Below are positions 6,090 through 34,744 of a stretch of DNA of 34,744 nt, in pieces. Under the pieces are notes generated by a model. The model did not search any database, had not been told where the DNA came from, and worked only from the letters and a program-made list of their open reading frames with translations. Every line of letters starts with the position of its first letter. The first letter of the stretch is position 1. This stretch comes from Deltaproteobacteria bacterium. Lineage in GTDB: Bacteria; Desulfobacterota; WTBG01; CAIYCZ01; CAIRTM01. Location: assembly GCA_016932595.1 (NCBI GenBank), contig JAFGCP010000021.1, positions 1 to 34,744 on the forward strand, written 5' to 3'. The translations under genes and the position numbers were made by a program.

Positions 6090-6244
6090 TGCGCGCTGGC
6101 CAGAGGGGGCTCATACAAACATTTTGATTGTTGACATACGAACCCGTCGTTTGTATGTATTACCTGGGATATCGAACGGCTTCAGCCGGGCTTTGTTCTT
6201 CGGACATACAGTGTGCAAAAATTTGCCATGAGAAAGCAGATGCT

Positions 6245-7603
6245 ATGACTTCCCCTGGTATGATTCTGCAGAGCATTATCAATATCAGTCTTTTTTTTCT
6301 TTTGGCTCTTGTTCCTTTGATGGTCAACCCTACGGCCTATGATTATTTCTACAAGCCCAAAATTGATTCGGTGTACGGGCTGATCTGCATAATCTGTGCT
6401 GCGGTGATCGCACGGTTGTGTATACGCAGAGTTGGGCTTCCCCTGCCCAGGCTTGCAGGCCCTGTTTTTTTGTTTTTATACGGCTGTTCAGCCATTATAT
6501 CAACCGTTCTGTCAATTGACCGCAAGCTGAGTCTGCAGGGCGATTTTTTGCGCTATGAAGGCCTGTTTACCCTGCTGGCATATGCCGCTCTGCCTGTCCT
6601 TTTCGCCGGTCTTGTTGAGTCCCGCATGCAGGCCGAGCAGCTTGTAAAATGGCTGCTTGCGAGCAGTTTTTTAATAGCCCTCTATGGCGTCATTCAATAC
6701 CTTGGCTTTAATCCGACACGGCATTTTATCGACTCCTTTAATGTGAGCAATGTGATCAACAGCACCATGGGCAATGGCAATTTCCTCGGCAAGTTTTTAG
6801 TGCTTACGGGGCCCCTTTTTGCAGGCTACTGCCTGTACAAAAATGAAAAAAAAACATATCTCCTGTGCTCCTTCGCGCTTGTTTTTGTCGTGATGGCGCT
6901 TGTGCTGAGCATGGCCAGGGCAAGCTGGCTGGGTTTTGCCTGTGCTGCGCTGCTTTTTGCGCTCCTGATTTTTCGCTATGGCGGGCCCGGGCAAAAAAGA
7001 TATATTGGTGTTTTTGGGGGAGCGATTGCCGGTGCGGCGCTTGTTTTCGGGGTGTTTGCCGCCAGCGGCTGGGGCTCATTCAATATCGGCAGCAGGATTG
7101 CCGCCAAGGCGAGGGCTGCTTTCAATCTGCAGCAGGGGCATGGTTCGGCCACGAGGATTTTTTTATGGGGGCAAGCGGTGCCTTTAATCGCCGAGCGGCC
7201 CTGGTTCGGCTACGGGCCTGATACGCATGTGCAGGTGTACAAGAAAGCATCTTTTGAGAGTTTTAAGCGGTTCAAGGCCTCCGGTATCATTGACCGCGCG
7301 CACAACAATTATATCGATATCGCGATCGGGCAGGGCATTTTTGGTTTGTTTGCCTACTGCGGCATTATGGTGTCTTTTCTTGTGTGGCTCTGGCGGTGCA
7401 TGAAACGTGAGACGGACCGGCGGCTGAGAATGCTTTTATGCGCTGTTTTCAGCAGCTATTGCGGCTATATGGTCAATGATTTTTTCAGCTTCAGCGTTGT
7501 CAGCGTTTCTCCAACCTTTTGGGCGCTTATGGGATTGACCTATGCATTGCAACGGTCAGATACCAGTGAAGACATGCACCCCCCGGGGGCTGCGGTTCTG
7601 TGA
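6245..7603 (+). CDS. Wzy_C-family O-antigen ligase / oligosaccharyltransferase-like membrane protein
   Basis: A roughly 452-residue protein with about 11-12 hydrophobic segments, which places it in the cytoplasmic membrane. The C-terminal half carries the Wzy_C pattern: an Arg-rich loop ATRIFLWGQA, the PWFGYGPDTH loop, and a periplasmic RAHNNYIDIAIGQG segment, whose His-Asn is conserved in WaaL ligases and in PglL/TfpO O-oligosaccharyltransferases. Such enzymes transfer a lipid-linked glycan to lipid A core or to protein. The frame is open from a TTG at 6128, but the first sensible start is ATG 6245, just before the first membrane helix; its ribosome site is weak. Lying next downstream of pilA recalls tfpO beside pilin genes. 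WaaL, Wzy polymerase and pilin transferase cannot be separated by sequence alone. Confidence 0.8.
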   Translation: MTSPGMILQSIINISLFFLLALVPLMVNPTAYDYFYKPKIDSVYGLICIICAAVIARLCIRRVGLPLPRLAGPVFLFLYGCSAIISTVLSIDRKLSLQGDFLRYEGLFTLLAYAALPVLFAGLVESRMQAEQLVKWLLASSFLIALYGVIQYLGFNPTRHFIDSFNVSNVINSTMGNGNFLGKFLVLTGPLFAGYCLYKNEKKTYLLCSFALVFVVMALVLSMARASWLGFACAALLFALLIFRYGGPGQKRYIGVFGGAIAGAALVFGVFAASGWGSFNIGSRIAAKARAAFNLQQGHGSATRIFLWGQAVPLIAERPWFGYGPDTHVQVYKKASFESFKRFKASGIIDRAHNNYIDIAIGQGIFGLFAYCGIMVSFLVWLWRCMKRETDRRLRMLLCAVFSSYCGYMVNDFFSFSVVSVSPTFWALMGLTYALQRSDTSEDMHPPGAAVL

Positions 7604-12700: not shown

Positions 12701-14224
12701 TCAATCTGAAATAGTGGATTGCCGCTGATATACCGCCACCTGCCGGAAGGATATTATTCGTCTGTACTGATCCCGGAACTGCTGCAGGCTGTGGGACTGC
12801 CAGTCAGGCAGACCGGAGGGTTCCCCTTTCCATGGGGGGCTATGCATAACGATCACCTGAGGCGGATTTGATTTAAACCACCAATCCCACTCCTCTTTTT
12901 GCAGAGAGGGCAGCGCCTCCGGATGAAGAAGGCCGTGGATATCGCGTATCCGGCGTTTCGAAAAATAGCCTATGTAGCCGATTTCGGTTGCTGCAACGAC
13001 AAAATCCCCTGGTGTGTTCTGCTCAATCCACTCGCCAGCTGCCCTGTATTCGCTGCCAAGACGATACGGCTTCAATCGGCTGAAAGGTGCTGCGGCAAAT
13101 TTTGTCATGTATACGAGCACCATCACGGAAATGAAGGCCGCCCGAATAACTGCAGATACATGAAGGGCTTTGTTTGCCTCGAATAATCCGAAGATGCTTT
13201 GCCCTAGTGTGAATGCCCCAAGCACAATGGCAATATCCAGGGCCATATTGCCCGGGGCGAGATACCAAAAGTATCCAACAGGAGCGTCAAGCAGAGAATA
13301 TGCCGCAACCTGTATGGCGCCAAACGCCATTATCAGCAATAAAAAGCGATGCCCGTTCATGAAGTCGCGATATGCCTGAAAAACCCCCAGTGCTGCCAGC
13401 GGGTAACTTACCCAGGGTATCAATGGTTGATTAAGGAAAAAATTCAACCATGAGGGTTGCTTCCGCCACCATCCTATAGTGTGCTGAATCGCTTTAACAG
13501 AGACGCTGCTGGGCACTATGTGCCCATAGGTTGCCCATGAATACAGCAGCCAGGGCGTAAGTGTGGCGGCGAAGACTGTTAGCATGCCCCACAATAGTTT
13601 CCGCTCTGTTAGAAGATGCGCCCCTGCTAAAACGCCAATGAGGGCGATACCCTCCGGGCGCGATAGAGCAGTGAAGGCGCAGAACATGCCTGCTGTCAAA
13701 TATCGTCCATGGGTGTAGGCCAGTATTGAAAAAACAATGCATGCCATAAAAGTGCTTGTTTCCATTCCCCATGAGCGAATGGGCACAGAGGCGCTACTGA
13801 CAAAGATCGCCATCGTTAATGCCAGCAGTCGGTTGTACTGCCGTATGCCAAAGTAAATACCCGCGCCCAGCGCGATCAGGCCTGACAGGTATACGAAGCT
13901 GATGGTGGCTGGTGCCGCACAGGGGAACACTTTAGCGCCAGCCAGAATAAAGGCGTAAAATGGCGATGTTATAGGGTTTACCATTGCGTCGTAATTATAT
14001 GTCAAGCCATGTCCGTCCCAGAAATTGTCCACGACCCTCTGAAATATGTATGCATCATCCACAAGGCTTTTTTGCATTGACGCCGGGGATGCGGTTACAA
14101 AGGCGGCCCAGTAAAGCGCAAGCATGGAGAGCGCCAGTATATCCCGGACACGAAAAGGAAGGCGGCAAAGTGGGGTGAAGGCATGTAAGTACAAGTTCAT
14201 TTTGCACCACTGCTGATGTTGCAT
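12701..14224 (-). CDS. GT-C-like membrane glycosyltransferase
   Basis: A 507-residue protein with about 10-12 hydrophobic segments and a hydrophilic C-terminal domain (about 420-505) expected to lie outside the cytoplasm. The first external loop holds SLVDDAYIFQR, followed by GHGLTYN and NPITSPFYAF. This acidic-pair plus TSP pattern is like that of AftB-type and related GT-C enzymes that use polyprenyl-phosphate sugar donors. AAGG lies 7 bases before ATG 14224; an internal ATG eight codons later is possible. It is divergent from the DPM1-like GT2 at 14416, the enzyme type that would make such a donor. The acceptor is unknown. Confidence 0.7.
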   Translation of the reverse strand: MQHQQWCKMNLYLHAFTPLCRLPFRVRDILALSMLALYWAAFVTASPASMQKSLVDDAYIFQRVVDNFWDGHGLTYNYDAMVNPITSPFYAFILAGAKVFPCAAPATISFVYLSGLIALGAGIYFGIRQYNRLLALTMAIFVSSASVPIRSWGMETSTFMACIVFSILAYTHGRYLTAGMFCAFTALSRPEGIALIGVLAGAHLLTERKLLWGMLTVFAATLTPWLLYSWATYGHIVPSSVSVKAIQHTIGWWRKQPSWLNFFLNQPLIPWVSYPLAALGVFQAYRDFMNGHRFLLLIMAFGAIQVAAYSLLDAPVGYFWYLAPGNMALDIAIVLGAFTLGQSIFGLFEANKALHVSAVIRAAFISVMVLVYMTKFAAAPFSRLKPYRLGSEYRAAGEWIEQNTPGDFVVAATEIGYIGYFSKRRIRDIHGLLHPEALPSLQKEEWDWWFKSNPPQVIVMHSPPWKGEPSGLPDWQSHSLQQFRDQYRRIISFRQVAVYQRQSTISD

Positions 14225-15417: not shown

Positions 15418-16374
15418 TTATTCGTTTGATGCGCCGGTAAAAAAGCTGCTTTTGCGCGCCAGGGTATAGGCCGTGACAAACATCAGGCCGTCAGCGGCAA
15501 TGCTGGCCGCGCGCAAAGCTATGGCCAGACCGCCTGCAACAGCAGGCCCGAATGCGGGGCTCAGCAACTCCAGCAGCACGACCTCCCGAACCCCAATTCC
15601 CGCTGGCGCTCCGAAGGCCAGCAGGCCGGCAATCCAGGAAGCAGCAAAGGCCCCCGTTAACAGAACAAGATGACTTTCCTTTGCCCCGAAAATTCCCGCT
15701 GCCAGGGCATCACCTGCCAGGCCGATCAGCAGAAACGTTATACTATAGAGGCCGAAGCAGCTTGCAAGACAACTCAGAAGGGTTCTGCCGCCTGCCTGCG
15801 TCCCGCTGCCGTGGCGGAACCTCTGCCAGAGCCAAAAGCCCGCTGCCCCGATAATCGGAACAGCAAATGCCGCACCTGGCAACAGCGCATGCAGCCAGGA
15901 TGGCAGAAACGCTGCAAGCGCCGGCGGCAAGACGGCATCGGCCATGCCAAAGCAGGCTGCGGCAACCGAAGCGGCCGTAATCAGAGCCCATCCAATCTCG
16001 ATGAGCAGGCTCATGGCGGCAGCTGCCGCAGGGATGCTGCAGCTTTTTCCCAGCACGACTCTACCGGCATAATGCGCAATATTGCCGGGCAAATATCGGG
16101 CAAATTGTGCCAGTATGAAAACTGCTATGCCATTAGCAGTTCGCACCGGAGCAGCATACAGCCGAAGCAGCAAGCACCAGGCATAGCCGCTCAGCATAAG
16201 CGCGCCGCAGTTCGCAAGAATTGCACCGGCAAGGGCCAAGAAAGTCCCTGCTCCCCAGGTGATGGGCGGCAGCGAAGAAAACTGTTGGATAGCCGTGATG
16301 GCAAAATAGGCCAGGGCTGCGAGCCCGATGGCGAAGCCCAGCCAGCGCAGCGCTGTTTTTATTGTCGTGTGCAT
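15418..16374 (-). CDS. lysylphosphatidylglycerol-synthase-TM-like (UPF0104/flippase-like) membrane protein
   Basis: A 318-residue protein with about eight hydrophobic segments and no soluble domain. The hallmark of the family is the GAPAGIGVREVVLLELL stretch near residue 260 and the FARYLPGNIAHYAGR stretch near residue 90. Members occur as the membrane half of MprF, and as stand-alone proteins beside GT genes, where a lipid-flipping role has been proposed but rarely proven. Its start overlaps the end of the upstream methyltransferase gene by 16 bases, indicating translational coupling. It is the last gene of the long minus-strand series and ends 42 bases from the convergent GT2. Confidence 0.8.
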   Translation of the reverse strand: MHTTIKTALRWLGFAIGLAALAYFAITAIQQFSSLPPITWGAGTFLALAGAILANCGALMLSGYAWCLLLRLYAAPVRTANGIAVFILAQFARYLPGNIAHYAGRVVLGKSCSIPAAAAAMSLLIEIGWALITAASVAAACFGMADAVLPPALAAFLPSWLHALLPGAAFAVPIIGAAGFWLWQRFRHGSGTQAGGRTLLSCLASCFGLYSITFLLIGLAGDALAAGIFGAKESHLVLLTGAFAASWIAGLLAFGAPAGIGVREVVLLELLSPAFGPAVAGGLAIALRAASIAADGLMFVTAYTLARKSSFFTGASNE

Positions 16375-17144
16375 AGCGCAATAAATCCGGTGCCCAGGCT
16401 GGTGTTTAAAAAAAGTTTTTGCAGGGCGAAAAAAAATTGCATGCAGAGAGTTCCGGGCAGGCTTGCCTCCAGGGGATACAGTTTTGTTTCCAGGCTGCGC
16501 TCAATGCCGCTGCGAAGGCTGCAATCAGCCCGGTCGCGCATAACGGAGCGGCGAAGCCGGCGCCCGTGGTAGATAGCGCGAAAGGGGTCTATCAGGTTGG
16601 AAAGAGGGAACCCGTAACACTGAACAACCTGCGGGGAAAAGCCGCAGTCCCGCAAAAGATCCAGCAGGCCCTGCCGCTCATACCTGCGGCAGTGGCCTGC
16701 CCATTCGTCTGAAGCAGACCAGCGGGAACGGTGTGCAGGCACGGACAGCAGCAGATGCCCTCCAGGCTTGAGCCAGCTGTGCCACTGCTGCAGTGCTGCT
16801 GCATCATCCTCTATGTGCTCAAGCACTTCAAAGGAGAGCACATGATCAAAAGCGCTGCCCCAGTCCTTTTCCGGGGTTTCAAATATTTGAAGACCGCGCG
16901 TTTCTCTATTTATATACAAAGCTAAATCCCTGGCTTCTGCAGACTGCTCAAGGCCGGAAACGTGAAATCCTGAACGGGCCATATCATACAGAAGCGCGCC
17001 GGAGCCGCATCCGATTTCAAGAAGGCGGCCGGCCGGAAGCCCTGCCAGAAGCCGCAGCACGCGATCTCTTCTCAACAAATAGCGCGGAGCTGGCACCCAG
17101 CCCCGCTCGGGGGCGCTTATGCCGTACACCGGATGTATATGCAT
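16359..17144 (-). CDS. class I SAM-dependent methyltransferase
   Basis: A 261-residue methyltransferase. Motif I is LLEIGCGSGALLYDMA at about residue 40, followed by the acidic end of beta-2 in GLEQS, FEVLEHIED at about 108 and LKPGGHLLLSVP at about 127. The C-terminal part is like that of methyltransferases found in polysaccharide loci and the UbiG/Methyltransf_11 group. It probably O- or N-methylates a sugar or lipid intermediate. The 3' end overlaps the downstream flippase-like gene by 16 bases; a 92-base gap separates it from the upstream GT4 gene. The substrate cannot be deduced. Confidence 0.85.
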   Translation of the reverse strand: MHIHPVYGISAPERGWVPAPRYLLRRDRVLRLLAGLPAGRLLEIGCGSGALLYDMARSGFHVSGLEQSAEARDLALYINRETRGLQIFETPEKDWGSAFDHVLSFEVLEHIEDDAAALQQWHSWLKPGGHLLLSVPAHRSRWSASDEWAGHCRRYERQGLLDLLRDCGFSPQVVQCYGFPLSNLIDPFRAIYHGRRLRRSVMRDRADCSLRSGIERSLETKLYPLEASLPGTLCMQFFFALQKLFLNTSLGTGFIALCTRQ

Positions 17145-18385: not shown

Positions 18386-19870
18386 TTATCCGTGCTCCGG
18401 TTTTGTGCGGACAGCTGCACGGCAGTACCGGTACAGCCTGCCTGCTGCGCCGGGCATATGCCGGAAGATATACCGGTGCAGCACGATGCTTGCCGCGATC
18501 CACAGAACGGGCAGCAGCGGCGTATTGTACCGGGCTATATTGTGGGTGAAAAATGAAAAAAAAGCATAGGAGAACAATGACGGCGCGAGGAATGCAAGCA
18601 GGACGGCATCCCGTGCTCTGAGACTGTGGAGGGTAAGCATGAACAAAGACAGGAAGAGCAGATAGCACACATAGGTTCCCTTCAGCAGGTAGATGTCATT
18701 CCAGAGGTACAGCCGGGGGCTGACGAAAATGCCCCGATAGGCAAAAGGCACGGTGGTTGCAAGGTGCTTGAAAAAATGTTTTCTCAGGGCCTGCCAGCCC
18801 TCAGCAACAAGCAGCTTATCGGTTTCGACCTGACTGCCCGTCTGTTTCAGCAGTTCCTTTTCGCGGGCGATAATGCGCGCGCGATAGCCGTTCTCATGCT
18901 CACGGTCGATATTGCGGTAGTCCTCAGGCGAGAAATATCTGGTGAGCAGCCGCTGCGCCGTGTCATTGGGCGTCCAGTACAGAAATGAGGCCAGGTATTC
19001 GCTCATGGTCATGGTGTCATAGACGGCCCGTCCGCTCAGGACCCCTCCGCCCCGTTCGGTAAGGTAGAACCTGCCGAAATGATACTGGTTGCGCGCCATC
19101 CATGCTCCGGTCAGCAGCGCAAAGGCAAGGGCAAAGACACTGATGCGGCGCAGCATCTGCAGAGGCGTCAGCCCGGCGCTGCGCGCTTCAAGCCAGAGCA
19201 GCAGCAGCGCGGGCGGAAAAAAATAGAAATAGACGGCATTGCTCAGCGCGAGCGCCGCCAGAAGCACGCCTGCGGCAGCATAGGCAAACGCCCTGTGCCG
19301 TGCCTTGAGCAGAATCGCCAGGCCGAGGCTCAGCCCCAGCAGCAGCAAAGAGGTAAGCCCTTCGGTAAGAAAACAGTTAACATTTTCCCAAAGATTTCTG
19401 CTTTGCGCCAGGCAGATACAGGCTGCAAGCGAAACAGCATAGCTGCGCGTCAGGACATATCCCGCCAGGAAGGTGAGTCCCGCAAGCAGGACAAAAACGG
19501 CTTTATTGACGGATTTGAGCTGGTTTATGCCCGCCTGCAGTGAAGGCTTCGTGGTTTGCATAACATCTATGGGCTGCACCTCTCCCCGGTTGAAAGAAAA
19601 AAGCATGCCGAACGATAAAAGAAAGGGGTATGCCGGCATGCGATGGGCTGTCGGCCGGACGCTGCTGCCTGAAGCGTCGAGGGAGAAAACCCCGTGATTG
19701 TAGAAATTAATGGCCATGGTTAAATTCTGGGCTGCGTCATAGATGATCGGCTCATATCTGATATGCTTGTCTGCGGCTCGCCAGCACATGGCCCCTATGA
19801 AAAGCAGCATGAGAAGCTTCAGCCCATTGGTGAGGTTTCGCAAAAGTGCAGGTGGAAATATTTTAACCAT
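18386..19870 (-). CDS. GT-C (PMT/ArnT-like) membrane glycosyltransferase
   Basis: A 494-residue multi-pass protein with about ten hydrophobic segments. The first external loop has the pattern PIIYDAAQNLTMAINFYNHG followed by RMPAYPFLLS, matching GT39-like enzymes in which an acidic residue of this loop acts in transfer from polyprenyl-phosphate sugars. A hydrophilic region at about residues 290-370, carrying a charged stretch near EHENGYRARI, is probably external. The start has GAAG 8 bases upstream and lies 18 bases after the stop of the neighbouring, similar gene. Two such enzymes in tandem suggest two periplasmic sugar additions. Donor and acceptor are unknown. Confidence 0.72.
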   Translation of the reverse strand: MVKIFPPALLRNLTNGLKLLMLLFIGAMCWRAADKHIRYEPIIYDAAQNLTMAINFYNHGVFSLDASGSSVRPTAHRMPAYPFLLSFGMLFSFNRGEVQPIDVMQTTKPSLQAGINQLKSVNKAVFVLLAGLTFLAGYVLTRSYAVSLAACICLAQSRNLWENVNCFLTEGLTSLLLLGLSLGLAILLKARHRAFAYAAAGVLLAALALSNAVYFYFFPPALLLLWLEARSAGLTPLQMLRRISVFALAFALLTGAWMARNQYHFGRFYLTERGGGVLSGRAVYDTMTMSEYLASFLYWTPNDTAQRLLTRYFSPEDYRNIDREHENGYRARIIAREKELLKQTGSQVETDKLLVAEGWQALRKHFFKHLATTVPFAYRGIFVSPRLYLWNDIYLLKGTYVCYLLFLSLFMLTLHSLRARDAVLLAFLAPSLFSYAFFSFFTHNIARYNTPLLPVLWIAASIVLHRYIFRHMPGAAGRLYRYCRAAVRTKPEHG

Positions 19871-28997: not shown

Positions 28998-29687
28998 TCA
29001 TTTTCTGCAAATGGCCATTTTTCGAAAGACTGAAATGCAATCCGTGTTTTTGCCCCAAGGTATATCAATTTGGTTTATTATTTCCAACCCATTTCGTTTG
29101 CAATATTTTTTAAATAACTCTTTGGTCATATTGCTGCGCAGGCCAGGGTTTAAAGAAATATCTGATTTGGCCAATTTGCCTAAATTGGAATGGTGAACAA
29201 ATCCTGTTCCATTCACCTTGAGCACTCGTGAAAACTCTTTAATATAGTCACGCAGTACGCCTTTATCAAAATGCACCGCTGCATCCCAGCAGTAGATAAA
29301 CGTTATACTGCAATCCTTTATCATATTGAGGTCACTGCCTTCATTTTTATAGAAATACATACTGCAGTTCACTGCTTGATTTTCAAAACGTTTTCGAAGT
29401 TTCTCCAGTGCGTATTCGTTTAAGTCAACGGCATGAATTATGCGGGAAACTTGTGCGAGTTTTTCCGTATTTCTTCCTGCTCCGGGAGCAAGCTCCAGAA
29501 CGGTTTCAAAATTAAAATCCTTTATTACCGGCCATATCATTTTATCCCACTGCGTATCCATAGACTGCTCTGCCATTGCGAAATAGTCATTCCACAATCC
29601 CTTAGTGGAACAAAATTTTTTATTTTTCTTTTTTGACGAAAAAACTTCCAGTAGCACATCCAAAAAAAATCGCACATTTTTTTTCAT
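28998..29687 (-). CDS. class I SAM-dependent methyltransferase
   Basis: A 229-residue methyltransferase with motif I LELAPGAGRNTEKLA at about residue 63, HAVDLNEYALEKL (acidic end of beta-2), ITFIYCWDAAVHF and VLKVNGTGFVHHSN. The layout suits a sugar or glycan-end methyltransferase. Codons are visibly richer in A/T and Lys/Asn than in the neighbouring genes, suggesting a separate origin. The ATG at 29687 has only a purine-rich AAAAAGG very close upstream, so the start is less certain than the frame. It is flanked by the most A/T-rich intergenic stretch in the cluster (29688-29783). Confidence 0.8.
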   Translation of the reverse strand: MKKNVRFFLDVLLEVFSSKKKNKKFCSTKGLWNDYFAMAEQSMDTQWDKMIWPVIKDFNFETVLELAPGAGRNTEKLAQVSRIIHAVDLNEYALEKLRKRFENQAVNCSMYFYKNEGSDLNMIKDCSITFIYCWDAAVHFDKGVLRDYIKEFSRVLKVNGTGFVHHSNLGKLAKSDISLNPGLRSNMTKELFKKYCKRNGLEIINQIDIPWGKNTDCISVFRKMAICRK

Positions 29688-29783: not shown

Positions 29784-30728
29784 TCAGGCGCCGCTAGTAT
29801 CATTTTCTTTTGGAGCAGTAGAGACATAGCGCTTAGCCCGGCGAAACAATGCTCCAAGAACGCGTCGGGGGAAAAAGAACGGTGCTTTCAAGGCTTCTTT
29901 ACAGGCATGCAAGCGGGGATGGAGGATTTTCCATTTACCCTCAAGCCGCTGAAGGTGCTCAGGCCTTTGTGAGCGCTGAACACCCTGATCAGTCAATAGC
30001 CAATTAGCATCCCAAAGGGTGAACCATCTATCTTTACAGCCAGCTAACGCTTTATTGCGAACACATTCCGGCCCTTCCCAAACCGTCTGCCACCCGTTCG
30101 GAGCATGGGAGTAATCATGGTTCTGGTGGATAGCTGTTATAACCGGCGTGGCGTCTATAACCGCAGCCCTGCGTGCCCGCGCCCTGTAGATCAGCCAGTT
30201 GTCATAGGCCGGCCGGCCTATGGCAAACGGCGGGATTTTACCCCAGAGTCCGTGAGAAAAAACAAAATAATCAATGCCGTCGGGTGTATGGAGCACTGCA
30301 TCCTTTCCGAGTCTATAACGCAGTTTTGTTTCCCAGGCAGCATCATGAAAGTCCAGAGGGTGATCAATATGCATATCCCAGCGTTGACCAGCCAAAAGGA
30401 AGCGGTGAAATGATATATTGTTGAGCGCCTTCGGAAAATCACTTAACAAAATAATATCAGCATTGATGAAGCAAAAAAACTTGTTTGTGGAAAGGTGCTG
30501 AGCCTTCTCGAAAATATCATTTAATAATGGTGTGCCAAACTCATTGCGGGCAATTTCAGGGCAATGTCGAGCGCCATATTCCTCTGCAACCTCTGCAGTG
30601 CCTTCCTCATCGCCAAATAAAATGATCTCACAAGACGATTTCAGGCTCATCCAGCTTTGAATTGCATTGCGCTGAATAATGTTAAAATGTCCCTTGAAAT
30701 GTTTGGGGACGGCGAACAGCGTCAGCAT
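29784..30728 (-). CDS. GT-A-fold nucleotide-sugar transferase-like protein
   Basis: A 314-residue protein without a signal or membrane segment. FFCFINADIILLSDF near residue 88 resembles the metal/donor site of GT-A enzymes, with an Asn-Ala-Asp in the DxD position. HGLWGKIPPFAIGRPAYDNW (about 160-180) is typical of a small group of poorly characterised transferases in bacterial glycan loci. The basic C-terminus (RRVLGALFRRAKR) could attach it to the membrane. AAGGA lies 7 bases before the ATG at 30728, which overlaps the end of the upstream GT4 gene by 7 bases. The function is predicted by fold only. Confidence 0.65.
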   Translation of the reverse strand: MLTLFAVPKHFKGHFNIIQRNAIQSWMSLKSSCEIILFGDEEGTAEVAEEYGARHCPEIARNEFGTPLLNDIFEKAQHLSTNKFFCFINADIILLSDFPKALNNISFHRFLLAGQRWDMHIDHPLDFHDAAWETKLRYRLGKDAVLHTPDGIDYFVFSHGLWGKIPPFAIGRPAYDNWLIYRARARRAAVIDATPVITAIHQNHDYSHAPNGWQTVWEGPECVRNKALAGCKDRWFTLWDANWLLTDQGVQRSQRPEHLQRLEGKWKILHPRLHACKEALKAPFFFPRRVLGALFRRAKRYVSTAPKENDTSGA

Positions 30729-32223: not shown

Positions 32224-32880
32224 TCAAGCGTTTTGTTTTTCCGCAATTGCCCGAACCTGAAACCATGAGCGTGCTATTCTTCCGTACACCCTGCAGGCTG
32301 CTTCAAATACTGTGCGCCCGGCATACTTTGCAATGGAGGCATATTTCGGGGGCCATTTATGGATATAGGGCTTTGATTCGATCAGTGAAAACCCGGCTTC
32401 CGTGAGCAGATTGCCCAAACACATCGGGCTCCAGGTGTAGAGGTGATGGTTGATATCATTGGGTGAAAAAGAATAATTGATTGATTCGCACGGAACGACA
32501 ATGATGATCCGCCCCCTTTGTTTTAGCTTTGCATACAGTGTTTCCAATTCCAGCAGAGGATGCAATGCATGCTCAAGAGCATTGTTGGAGATGATTTTGT
32601 CGGCATAGTCGTCCGGCACATCCCTCGAGCATGAGTATACTTCAACCCCGTTTTTTTTTGCCGCTTCCGCCGCTGCGGCATTGGGTTCAATGCCTATTTT
32701 TTTGCGGCAGTGCAGATTCTTAAGAAGATAGCCGCCACCGCAGCCAAAGTCCAGGACATCATCGGATTGGCCAAGGTAGCTGCTGAATTTAGTCAGATTC
32801 GCCCAGCCGCCGAATTCACCCACCGAGGATTGCCAGGAAAAATATTTTTTATCATAGTGTGTGCTCGTTGCTTCCGGCAT
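32224..32880 (-). CDS. class I SAM-dependent methyltransferase
   Basis: A 218-residue methyltransferase: THYDKKYFSWQ at the N-terminus, motif I VLDFGCGGGYLLKNL at about residue 42, IGIEPNAAAAE, ISNNALEHALHPLLELE and GRIIIVVPCE. The N-terminal pattern and NNALEH motif match methyltransferases found in O-antigen and capsule clusters (Methyltransf_23 type). The frame is open from a TTG at 32919, but ATG 32880 with AAGG 9 bases upstream is preferred. It lies 47 bases upstream of the GT4 gene. Target unknown. Confidence 0.85.
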   Translation of the reverse strand: MPEATSTHYDKKYFSWQSSVGEFGGWANLTKFSSYLGQSDDVLDFGCGGGYLLKNLHCRKKIGIEPNAAAAEAAKKNGVEVYSCSRDVPDDYADKIISNNALEHALHPLLELETLYAKLKQRGRIIIVVPCESINYSFSPNDINHHLYTWSPMCLGNLLTEAGFSLIESKPYIHKWPPKYASIAKYAGRTVFEAACRVYGRIARSWFQVRAIAEKQNA

Positions 32881-32987
32881 ACAAACCAGCCTTAAAATAA
32901 GTTTACCGTAGCCCGTCAACCATGGCGGGAATGCAAGATGCAGCGCTAATGTTTGCAGCGCCAGTGTCTAAAAACACCATCAGGTTT

Positions 32988-33893
32988 TCATGAGAACCTG
33001 CTGCGCCAGTTTTTTAAAAAAGAAGGCGCAGCAATTTTTTCTTCACGTATAAAAAAACGTTTTTTCAAGATCTCCTGCAGGGCGGCCTCTGAGTGGACGA
33101 TGAATTCCGGATGGTGCAGCGGTGTCCCGATTTCAAAAGAAGTACGCGCGCTGAAAGGAAAAATTTCTTTTGTATGTGTTGCAGCATATCCGAAACCGAT
33201 ATTGCTTACTAAATTCATATTAGAATTTATACATAATCCGCTATTGCAAAAAATGGTATATGTCCAAATATAGGCCCATGAGTCAATAGCGCCGTTTTTA
33301 ACTTTCAAAAAGATATCCTCCCAGTATTTTTTTTGGCTGTCCGTAAAAAAAATGCTGCTCAAAATATCGTGTTCGATAAATTTGTCAAGATTATGCATGT
33401 CTATATCAAAGTGCCGCCAAGCCCGTTTCCACGTCGCCCATCCCCAGCAGTGTTCTATTTTTGAAAAATAATAGCTGTCGTGCGAAACCGGGTGATCCAG
33501 GGGGTTTTCGCCTGATATATGCATGATTCTTTCATCGTTGCGGTACTGCTTCAGCAGTTCCCGGCAGTAGTGAAAAAAGCTGTGTGACGGCAGCGTATCG
33601 TCTTCCAGAATTATTCCTTCTTCTGTATGTTCGAAAAACCAATTAATCGCCTCGCTTACAGCTTTTTTACACCCCAGGTTTTTTTCTCTAAAGAGCGTTT
33701 TCACCTCGCAGTCCCAATCAATTTGCTCAATTATGCCGCGCGTGCGTTCGCACAGAATCCTTTCAGCTTCATTCCTGGGCCCGTCTGCCGCGACAAAAAG
33801 ACGCGCGGGCTGAGCCATGCGAATTTCTCTGAAAACAAGCTCGGTGAGCTCCGGCCTGTTGAATATCAGGAATAATACCGGTACGTCAAACAT
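32988..33893 (-). CDS. GT-A glycosyltransferase-like protein (HlpA-like annotation group)
   Basis: A 301-residue protein of the nucleotide-diphospho-sugar transferase superfamily. VPVLFLIFNRPELTELVF opens it, FVAADGPRNE is the first acidic loop, NLGCKKAV follows, EGIILEDDTLPSHSFF at about residue 95 is the metal-site block, and HCWGWATWKRAW at about 150 is characteristic of this group. Relatives are often labelled hemolytic protein HlpA-like, but the fold and setting indicate sugar transfer. The ribosome site is strong: GAGGAG about 5 bases before ATG 33893. No clear terminator follows, although its stop codon lies within a short imperfect hairpin (CAGGTT and AACCTG arms, about 32983-33002). 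Confidence 0.75.
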   Translation of the reverse strand: MFDVPVLFLIFNRPELTELVFREIRMAQPARLFVAADGPRNEAERILCERTRGIIEQIDWDCEVKTLFREKNLGCKKAVSEAINWFFEHTEEGIILEDDTLPSHSFFHYCRELLKQYRNDERIMHISGENPLDHPVSHDSYYFSKIEHCWGWATWKRAWRHFDIDMHNLDKFIEHDILSSIFFTDSQKKYWEDIFLKVKNGAIDSWAYIWTYTIFCNSGLCINSNMNLVSNIGFGYAATHTKEIFPFSARTSFEIGTPLHHPEFIVHSEAALQEILKKRFFIREEKIAAPSFLKNWRSRFS

Positions 33894-34043
33894 TGGAACT
33901 CCTCAGGGTGGTTCGGTCGAGGGGCAGTTTCAGTAATAAAAAGCTGTGCTGGTTTAGCCGTTTTGATGCATGAGCGCATCCACCGGGTCACATTCAGGCG
34001 CTGAAAATATTAAGAAGAATAGGGGTGGGCACCGAATGGTTTT

Positions 34044-34283
34044 TCATGTATTGGAAATTGCGCGTCTTTGATAAAGAATATTGTAATAGCTTTCCTCGAA
34101 ATTCAATATGGCCAGGGGTTTATACAGGTGGACGATGACTGCTTCAATTTTGTCCCCGCATCGCGCCTCAACCAGAATGAATTAAATGCGGCGCCGATCA
34201 AAGGCAATGCCTTTCAGAACCGGCGCCTCCGATCCCTCGACGTCCAGCGACAGCAGATCGATATGTTTAAGATAATGTTTTTC
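34044..34283 (-). pseudogene. remnant of an FkbM-family methyltransferase (C-terminal part, broken)
   Basis: Read on the minus strand, this stretch gives HIDLLSLDVEGSEAPVLKG and then FDRRRI, an in-frame TAA at 34182-34184, and beyond it FILVEARCGDKIEAVIVHLY and NILYQRRAISN up to a TGA at 34044-34046. IDLLSLDVEG...ILVE is the conserved C-terminal signature of FkbM-type O-methyltransferases, and the order and spacing are right for that family. The N-terminal SAM-binding part is absent; the remnant starts inside the end of the Wzt-like gene in another frame. So the gene is truncated at 5' and interrupted by a stop. The rest of the gap up to 33894 shows nothing recognisable. A sequencing error at the stop cannot restore the missing N-terminus. 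Confidence 0.8.
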
Positions 34284-34744
34284 CCTGCATGGACAAAGTG
34301 TTGTGGCGTTCATGTTCGGACAGGAGCGTGCTGCTGCCGGCGGTCCATCTGTGATCGATCAGAATGTCTCCCTGGGTTCGTTCAATCAGTTTGCCGGTTC
34401 CGTAATAGTCGCCATCCTCGACGGTAATAATGAAGGCGTTTTGTAACCAATCCACGATTTCTCCATTGACGGAGCAAAAGAGATTGCAGTCATAACGTCC
34501 GGATCTGAGTTGGAGTTTTGGCCAGTAACACTCAAAATAGCCCGATGAATGTATATCAAGCAGAGTGTGGCCCGTATCTGCAGAATTCAGGTTGGTCAGG
34601 AGATACCCCTGGCTGCTTCTCACATTAAAGGAAATGAGAACAGATGCACTCGGTTTTTCCCGTTCTGATAGATAGTATAATTTAATGCGGACGTCCTGTC
34701 CGCTCATCACTTGTTGCAGTTCATTACCTGCGGAATTGCAAATA
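34267..34744 (-). CDS. wzt: Wzt-type ABC exporter ATPase, C-terminal glycan-binding domain (5' part outside window)
   Basis: The C-terminal approximately 160 residues of a polysaccharide ABC-transporter ATPase. The frame stays open to the right edge, and the residues upstream of the GTG at 34710 (NSAGNELQQVMSGQ) continue the domain, so that GTG is not the true start. The beta-sandwich pattern matches the Wzt C-terminal domain, which recognises the capped end of O-antigen before export: VRIKLYYLSE, VLISFNVRSSQG, LQLRSGRYDCNLFCSV, DYYGTGKL and ILIDHRW. The ATPase half is not visible. The last 25 or so residues after the Trp do not look native and lead into the broken FkbM sequence. Its presence predicts a partner permease (Wzm) upstream. 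Confidence 0.85.
   Translation of the reverse strand, partial: ICNSAGNELQQVMSGQDVRIKLYYLSEREKPSASVLISFNVRSSQGYLLTNLNSADTGHTLLDIHSSGYFECYWPKLQLRSGRYDCNLFCSVNGEIVDWLQNAFIITVEDGDYYGTGKLIERTQGDILIDHRWTAGSSTLLSEHERHNTLSMQGKTLS

What the first reader, a model, noticed from the sequence alone, without database searches (positions are those of the whole stretch)
34044..34744. Wzt gene end joined to a decayed FkbM methyltransferase
Beyond the DYYGTG...DHRW end of the Wzt domain, the frame runs on for about 25 residues (including NTLSM) and stops inside sequence that, in another frame, encodes the FkbM C-terminal signature. NTLSM itself resembles the TL-containing segment that precedes IDLLSLDVEG in FkbM proteins, so a deletion plus a +1 shift near 34285 may have fused the two genes. 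The FkbM part also has a TAA at 34182. Loss of a capping methyltransferase next to a cap-recognising Wzt domain could change chain-length control.
Basis: partly seen in the sequence, partly recalled or inferred. Interest (0 to 1): 0.5.

Follow-up and report, generated by a model that had tools for sequence, protein, structure and literature searches.

The report
Decayed methyltransferase gene behind transporter gene
At one end of an assembly piece, a polysaccharide-exporter gene runs into the last third of a sugar-methylating enzyme gene whose front is missing and which carries a stop codon, an ordinary piece of gene decay, since an intact copy of the same gene pair exists elsewhere in the genome.

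Summary
On the minus strand the Wzt (O-antigen ABC exporter) cap-binding domain keeps its conserved final Trp (34347-34345), then reads 25 further residues to a TAA at 34269-34267. Thirteen Wzt relatives have 1-16 residues after that Trp. The stop lies inside the C-terminal third of an FkbM methyltransferase (about 34310-34044) in another frame, which has its own in-frame TAA at 34184-34182. FkbM codons 1 to about 143 are missing. An intact, syntenic wzt-fkbM-third gene set lies on contig C285 of the same assembly; its FkbM is 63% identical to the remnant, far closer than any other relative found. So this is pseudogenisation of fkbM by a deletion that also removed the wzt stop. The effect on chain length is untested: nothing shows that this FkbM makes the cap, and three other methyltransferase genes lie in the cluster. 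The junction is about 400 bases from the contig end, so assembly error is not excluded. Ordinary; low interest.

The parts
34267..34743 (-). 3' part of wzt: end of the cap-binding Wzt_C domain (to the W codon, 34347-34345) plus the run-on tail and TAA at 34269-34267; 5' part beyond the contig end
   Evidence: Pfam PF14524 45.6 bits over cut-off 30.4; window is the whole contig C256, 34744 bases
34270..34344 (-). 25-residue run-on of the Wzt frame past the conserved Trp, read partly out of frame through FkbM sequence
   Evidence: tail lengths in 13 Wzt relatives are 1-16 residues
34044..34310 (-). fkbM remnant: codons equivalent to 144-226 of the intact C285 copy, five further codons (AISNT) and a stop at 34046-34044; codons 1 to about 143 are missing
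   Evidence: tblastn 63% over 82-83 residues; PF05050
34182..34184 (-). in-frame TAA inside the fkbM remnant, at the position of Glu186 of the intact copy
34310..34344 (-). stretch that holds the deletion junction on the preferred reading; parentage of these bases not resolved
   Evidence: no significant match to the intact wzt end or fkbM
32988..33893 (-). gene of 301 aa, homologue of the gene that follows the intact fkbM on C285 (48% over 288 aligned positions); shows the synteny
   Evidence: blastp; no Pfam match at E 0.01

Best explanation
A degraded gene. An ancestral gene order wzt, fkbM, third gene, still intact on contig C285 of the same genome, lost by deletion the wzt stop codon and roughly the first 143 codons of fkbM. 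The join put wzt out of frame with the FkbM remainder, so the Wzt frame runs 25 residues past its last conserved Trp and stops. The FkbM remainder also acquired an in-frame TAA. Shown: the missing front part, the TAA, the run-on tail, and the syntenic intact set. Inferred: that one deletion made the join, that FkbM activity from this locus is lost (the SAM-binding half, placed there from general knowledge of the family, is gone), and that Wzt still works, its conserved domain being intact as far as the contig reaches and carrying only a changed tail. The effect on the glycan is unknown; the FkbM may have been a cap enzyme or an ordinary side-group methylase.
For: Same gene order on C285, all open there, with 30-31% (Wzt), 63% (FkbM) and 48% (third gene) protein identity. 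The remnant and the C285 FkbM are by far each other's nearest relatives: the best other match to the C285 FkbM in a search of 395 genomes is 40%, and on plasmids 42.7%. The remnant aligns only from residue 144/145 on. One TAA inside. Of 13 Wzt relatives none has a tail of 25 residues; the longest is 16. Remnant against intact copy: dN 0.26, dS 0.81, differences 18/13/30 at codon positions 1/2/3 over 72 codons, so the gene was under constraint for most of the divergence and decay is probably recent. No direct repeat in 33900-34744 and no second copy of the junction in the assembly.
Against: The junction is about 400 bases from the contig end of a 76%-complete, 460-contig assembly, and no reads or second genome of the species could be consulted. 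The bases at 34310-34344 match neither parent clearly. A weak 14-base inverted pair has one arm at 34312-34325. A Wzt-frame match to FkbM (LSEHERHNTLSMQGKTLS with residues 132-149 of the C285 copy) scores 26, reached by 112 of 3,000 DNA shuffles, so a join further upstream plus a second small deletion remains possible.
Confidence: 0.82

Rival explanations
1. Assembly artefact: the last 400 bases of the contig were mis-joined or collapsed, and an intact fkbM exists in the organism.
For: Fragmented assembly; junction close to a contig end; the wzt front is on no other contig that could be recognised.
Against: The order wzt, fkbM part, third gene matches the intact set on C285, which a random mis-join would not give. 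There is no direct repeat at the junction and no other copy of it in the assembly. The TAA at 34184-34182 is a second, independent lesion.
Confidence: 0.12
2. Two steps: wzt fused in frame to mid-fkbM near LSEHER, then a small deletion with a frame shift near 34270-34285. (A variant of the best explanation as to how the decay happened, not a rival to decay.)
For: 18-residue ungapped match of the Wzt-frame tail to C285 FkbM 132-149, ending in identical KTLS; in that fixed register reached by 0 of 20,000 residue shuffles.
Against: In free register it is reached by 112 of 3,000 DNA shuffles, and by 82 of 1,422 random open 25-codon pieces of the window. The competing ungapped FkbM-frame match over the same bases is reached by 8 of 20,000 and keeps the spacing of TL (or TI) to the ID of HIDLL seen in the 8 FkbM rows that I picked by hand for from the 22 rows printed.
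Confidence: 0.2
3. A working short product, or a programmed +1 frameshift, makes a Wzt-FkbM fusion.
For: The two frames overlap by about 40 bases.
Against: The front part of FkbM is absent in any frame, and a TAA follows at 34184-34182. No Wzt with such an extension is among the 13 relatives aligned (from the search of 395 genomes).
Confidence: 0.02

Closest known systems
Wzt with C-terminal cap-binding module (E. coli O9a, A. aeolicus)
   Same: Wzt_C domain over the Pfam cut-off, with DYYGTG and the final Trp strand
   Different: 25-residue tail past the Trp; ABC domain lies beyond the contig; the cap recognised is unknown
FkbM-family methyltransferase (PF05050)
   Same: C-terminal third with the IDLLSLDVEG signature
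   Different: front part missing, in-frame stop: a pseudogene
WbdD, the chain terminator of E. coli O9a
   Same: a methyltransferase working with a cap-recognising Wzt (PMC3482155, abstract and passages)
   Different: WbdD is a kinase-methyltransferase with a coiled coil; no evidence that this FkbM is a terminator

Membership tests
Wzt_C (PF14524) | match over the curated cut-off | tested here: met
   45.6 against 30.4 bits, profile positions 17-133 of 143
Wzt of ABC-dependent O-antigen export | N-terminal ATP-binding domain and neighbouring wzm | not testable with these tools
   beyond the contig end; no unattached front half recognised in the assembly
FkbM methyltransferase (PF05050) | match over the curated cut-off | tested here: met
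   29.1 and 30.7 against 22.7 bits, positions 100-148 and 107-148 of 173 only
FkbM methyltransferase (PF05050), working enzyme | complete open frame with the SAM-binding half | tested here: not met
   residues 1 to about 143 absent; TAA at 34184-34182
chain-terminating cap methyltransferase | methylates the non-reducing end and is needed for export | not testable with these tools
   no biochemical data; papers seen describe other enzymes

The most novel reading that the evidence does not exclude
After the cap methyltransferase was lost, the Wzt cap-binding domain was kept with a new tail next to its C-terminal strand (the strand exchanged in CBD dimers), and now exports glycans capped by another methyltransferase of the cluster, so cap specificity was switched by gene decay.
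Probability: 0.05. Interest if true: 0.4.

Novelty: new member of a known kind. Interest (0 to 1): 0.12.

Why it matters
It is an example of decay in an O-antigen export locus of an unnamed bacterium. If the lost FkbM were the cap enzyme, the locus would be a natural test of how a cap-recognising exporter copes without its cap, because the terminator is essential for export in the E. coli O9a model (PMC3482155). An intact copy of the pair in the same genome makes loss of one copy easier to tolerate. No broader significance is shown.

Tried and rejected
Two scans of named genomes, with the Wzt fragment and with an FkbM alignment, confirmed no relative. Plasmid searches gave only distant FkbM (26 records, all under 60% identity) and 2 Wzt records. 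PDB sequence searches gave nothing for either protein. The AlphaFold model of the Wzt fragment, made from a single sequence, has mean pLDDT 45 and was not used. Promoter and terminator scans are at or near chance (3 and 1 found; shuffle means 1.3 and 1.0). A programmed frameshift was considered and rejected: the front part of FkbM is absent and a stop follows. Paper searches with Wzt + FkbM + methyltransferase + O-antigen (0 papers) and FkbM + O-antigen + ABC transporter + cap (2 papers, not on this subject by their listing) showed no report of this pairing in that library.

Full report
Setting. The window is a whole contig (C256, 34,744 bases) of a 3.87-Mb assembly in 460 contigs, 76% complete. 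The finding lies at its very end. The minus-strand genes next to it are a polysaccharide cluster: glycosyltransferases of groups 1 and 2 and three methyltransferase genes at 32224-32919, 28998-29687 and 16359-17144, with an O-antigen-ligase-type gene (Wzy_C) further off at 6128-7603.

Observation. The frame 34743-34267 (minus) is the end of a Wzt: PF14524 matches with 45.6 bits against a cut-off of 30.4. It keeps the DYYGTG motif and the last conserved Trp, codon 34347-34345, then runs 25 residues to TAA. In another frame the same bases and those beyond encode the C-terminal third of an FkbM methyltransferase (PF05050), with a TAA at 34184-34182 and the final stop at 34046-34044.

The intact counterpart. 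The same assembly holds, on C285, an open wzt (428 aa), a 226-residue FkbM whose start overlaps the wzt stop, and a gene homologous to the window's 32988-33893. The remnant matches this FkbM from residue 144/145 to 226 at 63%; DNA identity is 77% over 169 bases. Residues 1 to about 143 have no counterpart in the window. The nearest other FkbM in the sample of 395 genomes of the phylum is 40% identical to the C285 protein (13 of 395 genomes match at E 1e-10, own genome included). Searched with the remnant itself, 2 of 58 genomes match at E 0.001: the own genome, and one of the same family at 32%. Two further FkbM genes are present, on C400 and C158, the latter also just downstream of a wzt. Of 14 Wzt loci looked at, FkbM was found downstream in 3 (C285, C158, and G001 of the same genus); for some of the others the DNA held after wzt is short (L004 ends about 100 bases after it), so the count is a lower bound.

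Tail. In 13 Wzt relatives (from; the C285 gene, held twice as L007 and L016, counted once; C158 and C412, which that search did not list, not included) 1-16 residues follow the conserved Trp, as read from the alignment. The window has 25. So the original wzt stop is most likely gone.

Where the frame changes. The FkbM frame has its own TL at the usual spacing to HIDLL, and its anchored match upstream of HIDLL is reached by 8 of 20,000 DNA shuffles. The Wzt-frame match (LSEHERHNTLSMQGKTLS against LAKDEKTYIVKVPAKTLS) is reached in free register by 112 of 3,000 DNA shuffles and by 82 of 1,422 random open pieces of the window. NTLSM is thus most likely an out-of-frame reading of the TTL codons, and a single out-of-frame deletion suffices. 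The two tests differ in form (anchored against free register), so this is a preference and not a proof.

Age. Against the intact copy the remnant differs at 18, 13 and 30 of 72 first, second and third codon positions; dN is 0.26 and dS 0.81 with the stop codon left out. Most of the divergence accumulated under constraint, so decay is probably recent relative to the split of the two copies.

Function. In the E. coli O9a model the terminator WbdD caps the chain, and without the cap the chain is made but not exported (PMC3482155, abstract and passages). In A. aeolicus the Wzt domain binds 3-O-methyl-mannose, and isolated CBDs exchange C-terminal strands in the dimer (PMC9445017, passages). Some exporters lack such a domain, and terminators differ in kind (PMC11231755, passages). 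The idea that losing FkbM alters chain length is therefore reasonable but untested: this FkbM is not shown to be a terminator, other methyltransferases are nearby, and an intact paralogue exists.

Verdict. An ordinary degraded gene, with an assembly error near the contig end as the main rival.

Noticed in passing
L046 1884-4070 (G000:C285), minus strand: C285 carries a second permease-Wzt pair besides the one next to the intact fkbM; its Wzt ATP-binding part is 64% identical to the first.
   Followed up: no
L039 2950-3429 (Neorhizobium galegae VafX2 plasmid pNgVX): The FkbM gene annotated here is short (480 bases), and its match to the FkbM of strain 7g (L038) breaks off mid-protein, possibly another frameshifted FkbM.
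   Followed up: no
window 33894-34043: 150 bases without a gene between the fkbM remnant and the next gene, against a gap of roughly 20-30 bases at the same place on C285 (from the ORF coordinates).
   Followed up: partly
window 18389-19870, 15421-16374, 12704-14224, 29787-30728, 32991-33893: Open frames in the polysaccharide cluster without a Pfam match (E limits 1e-5 or 0.01).
   Followed up: no
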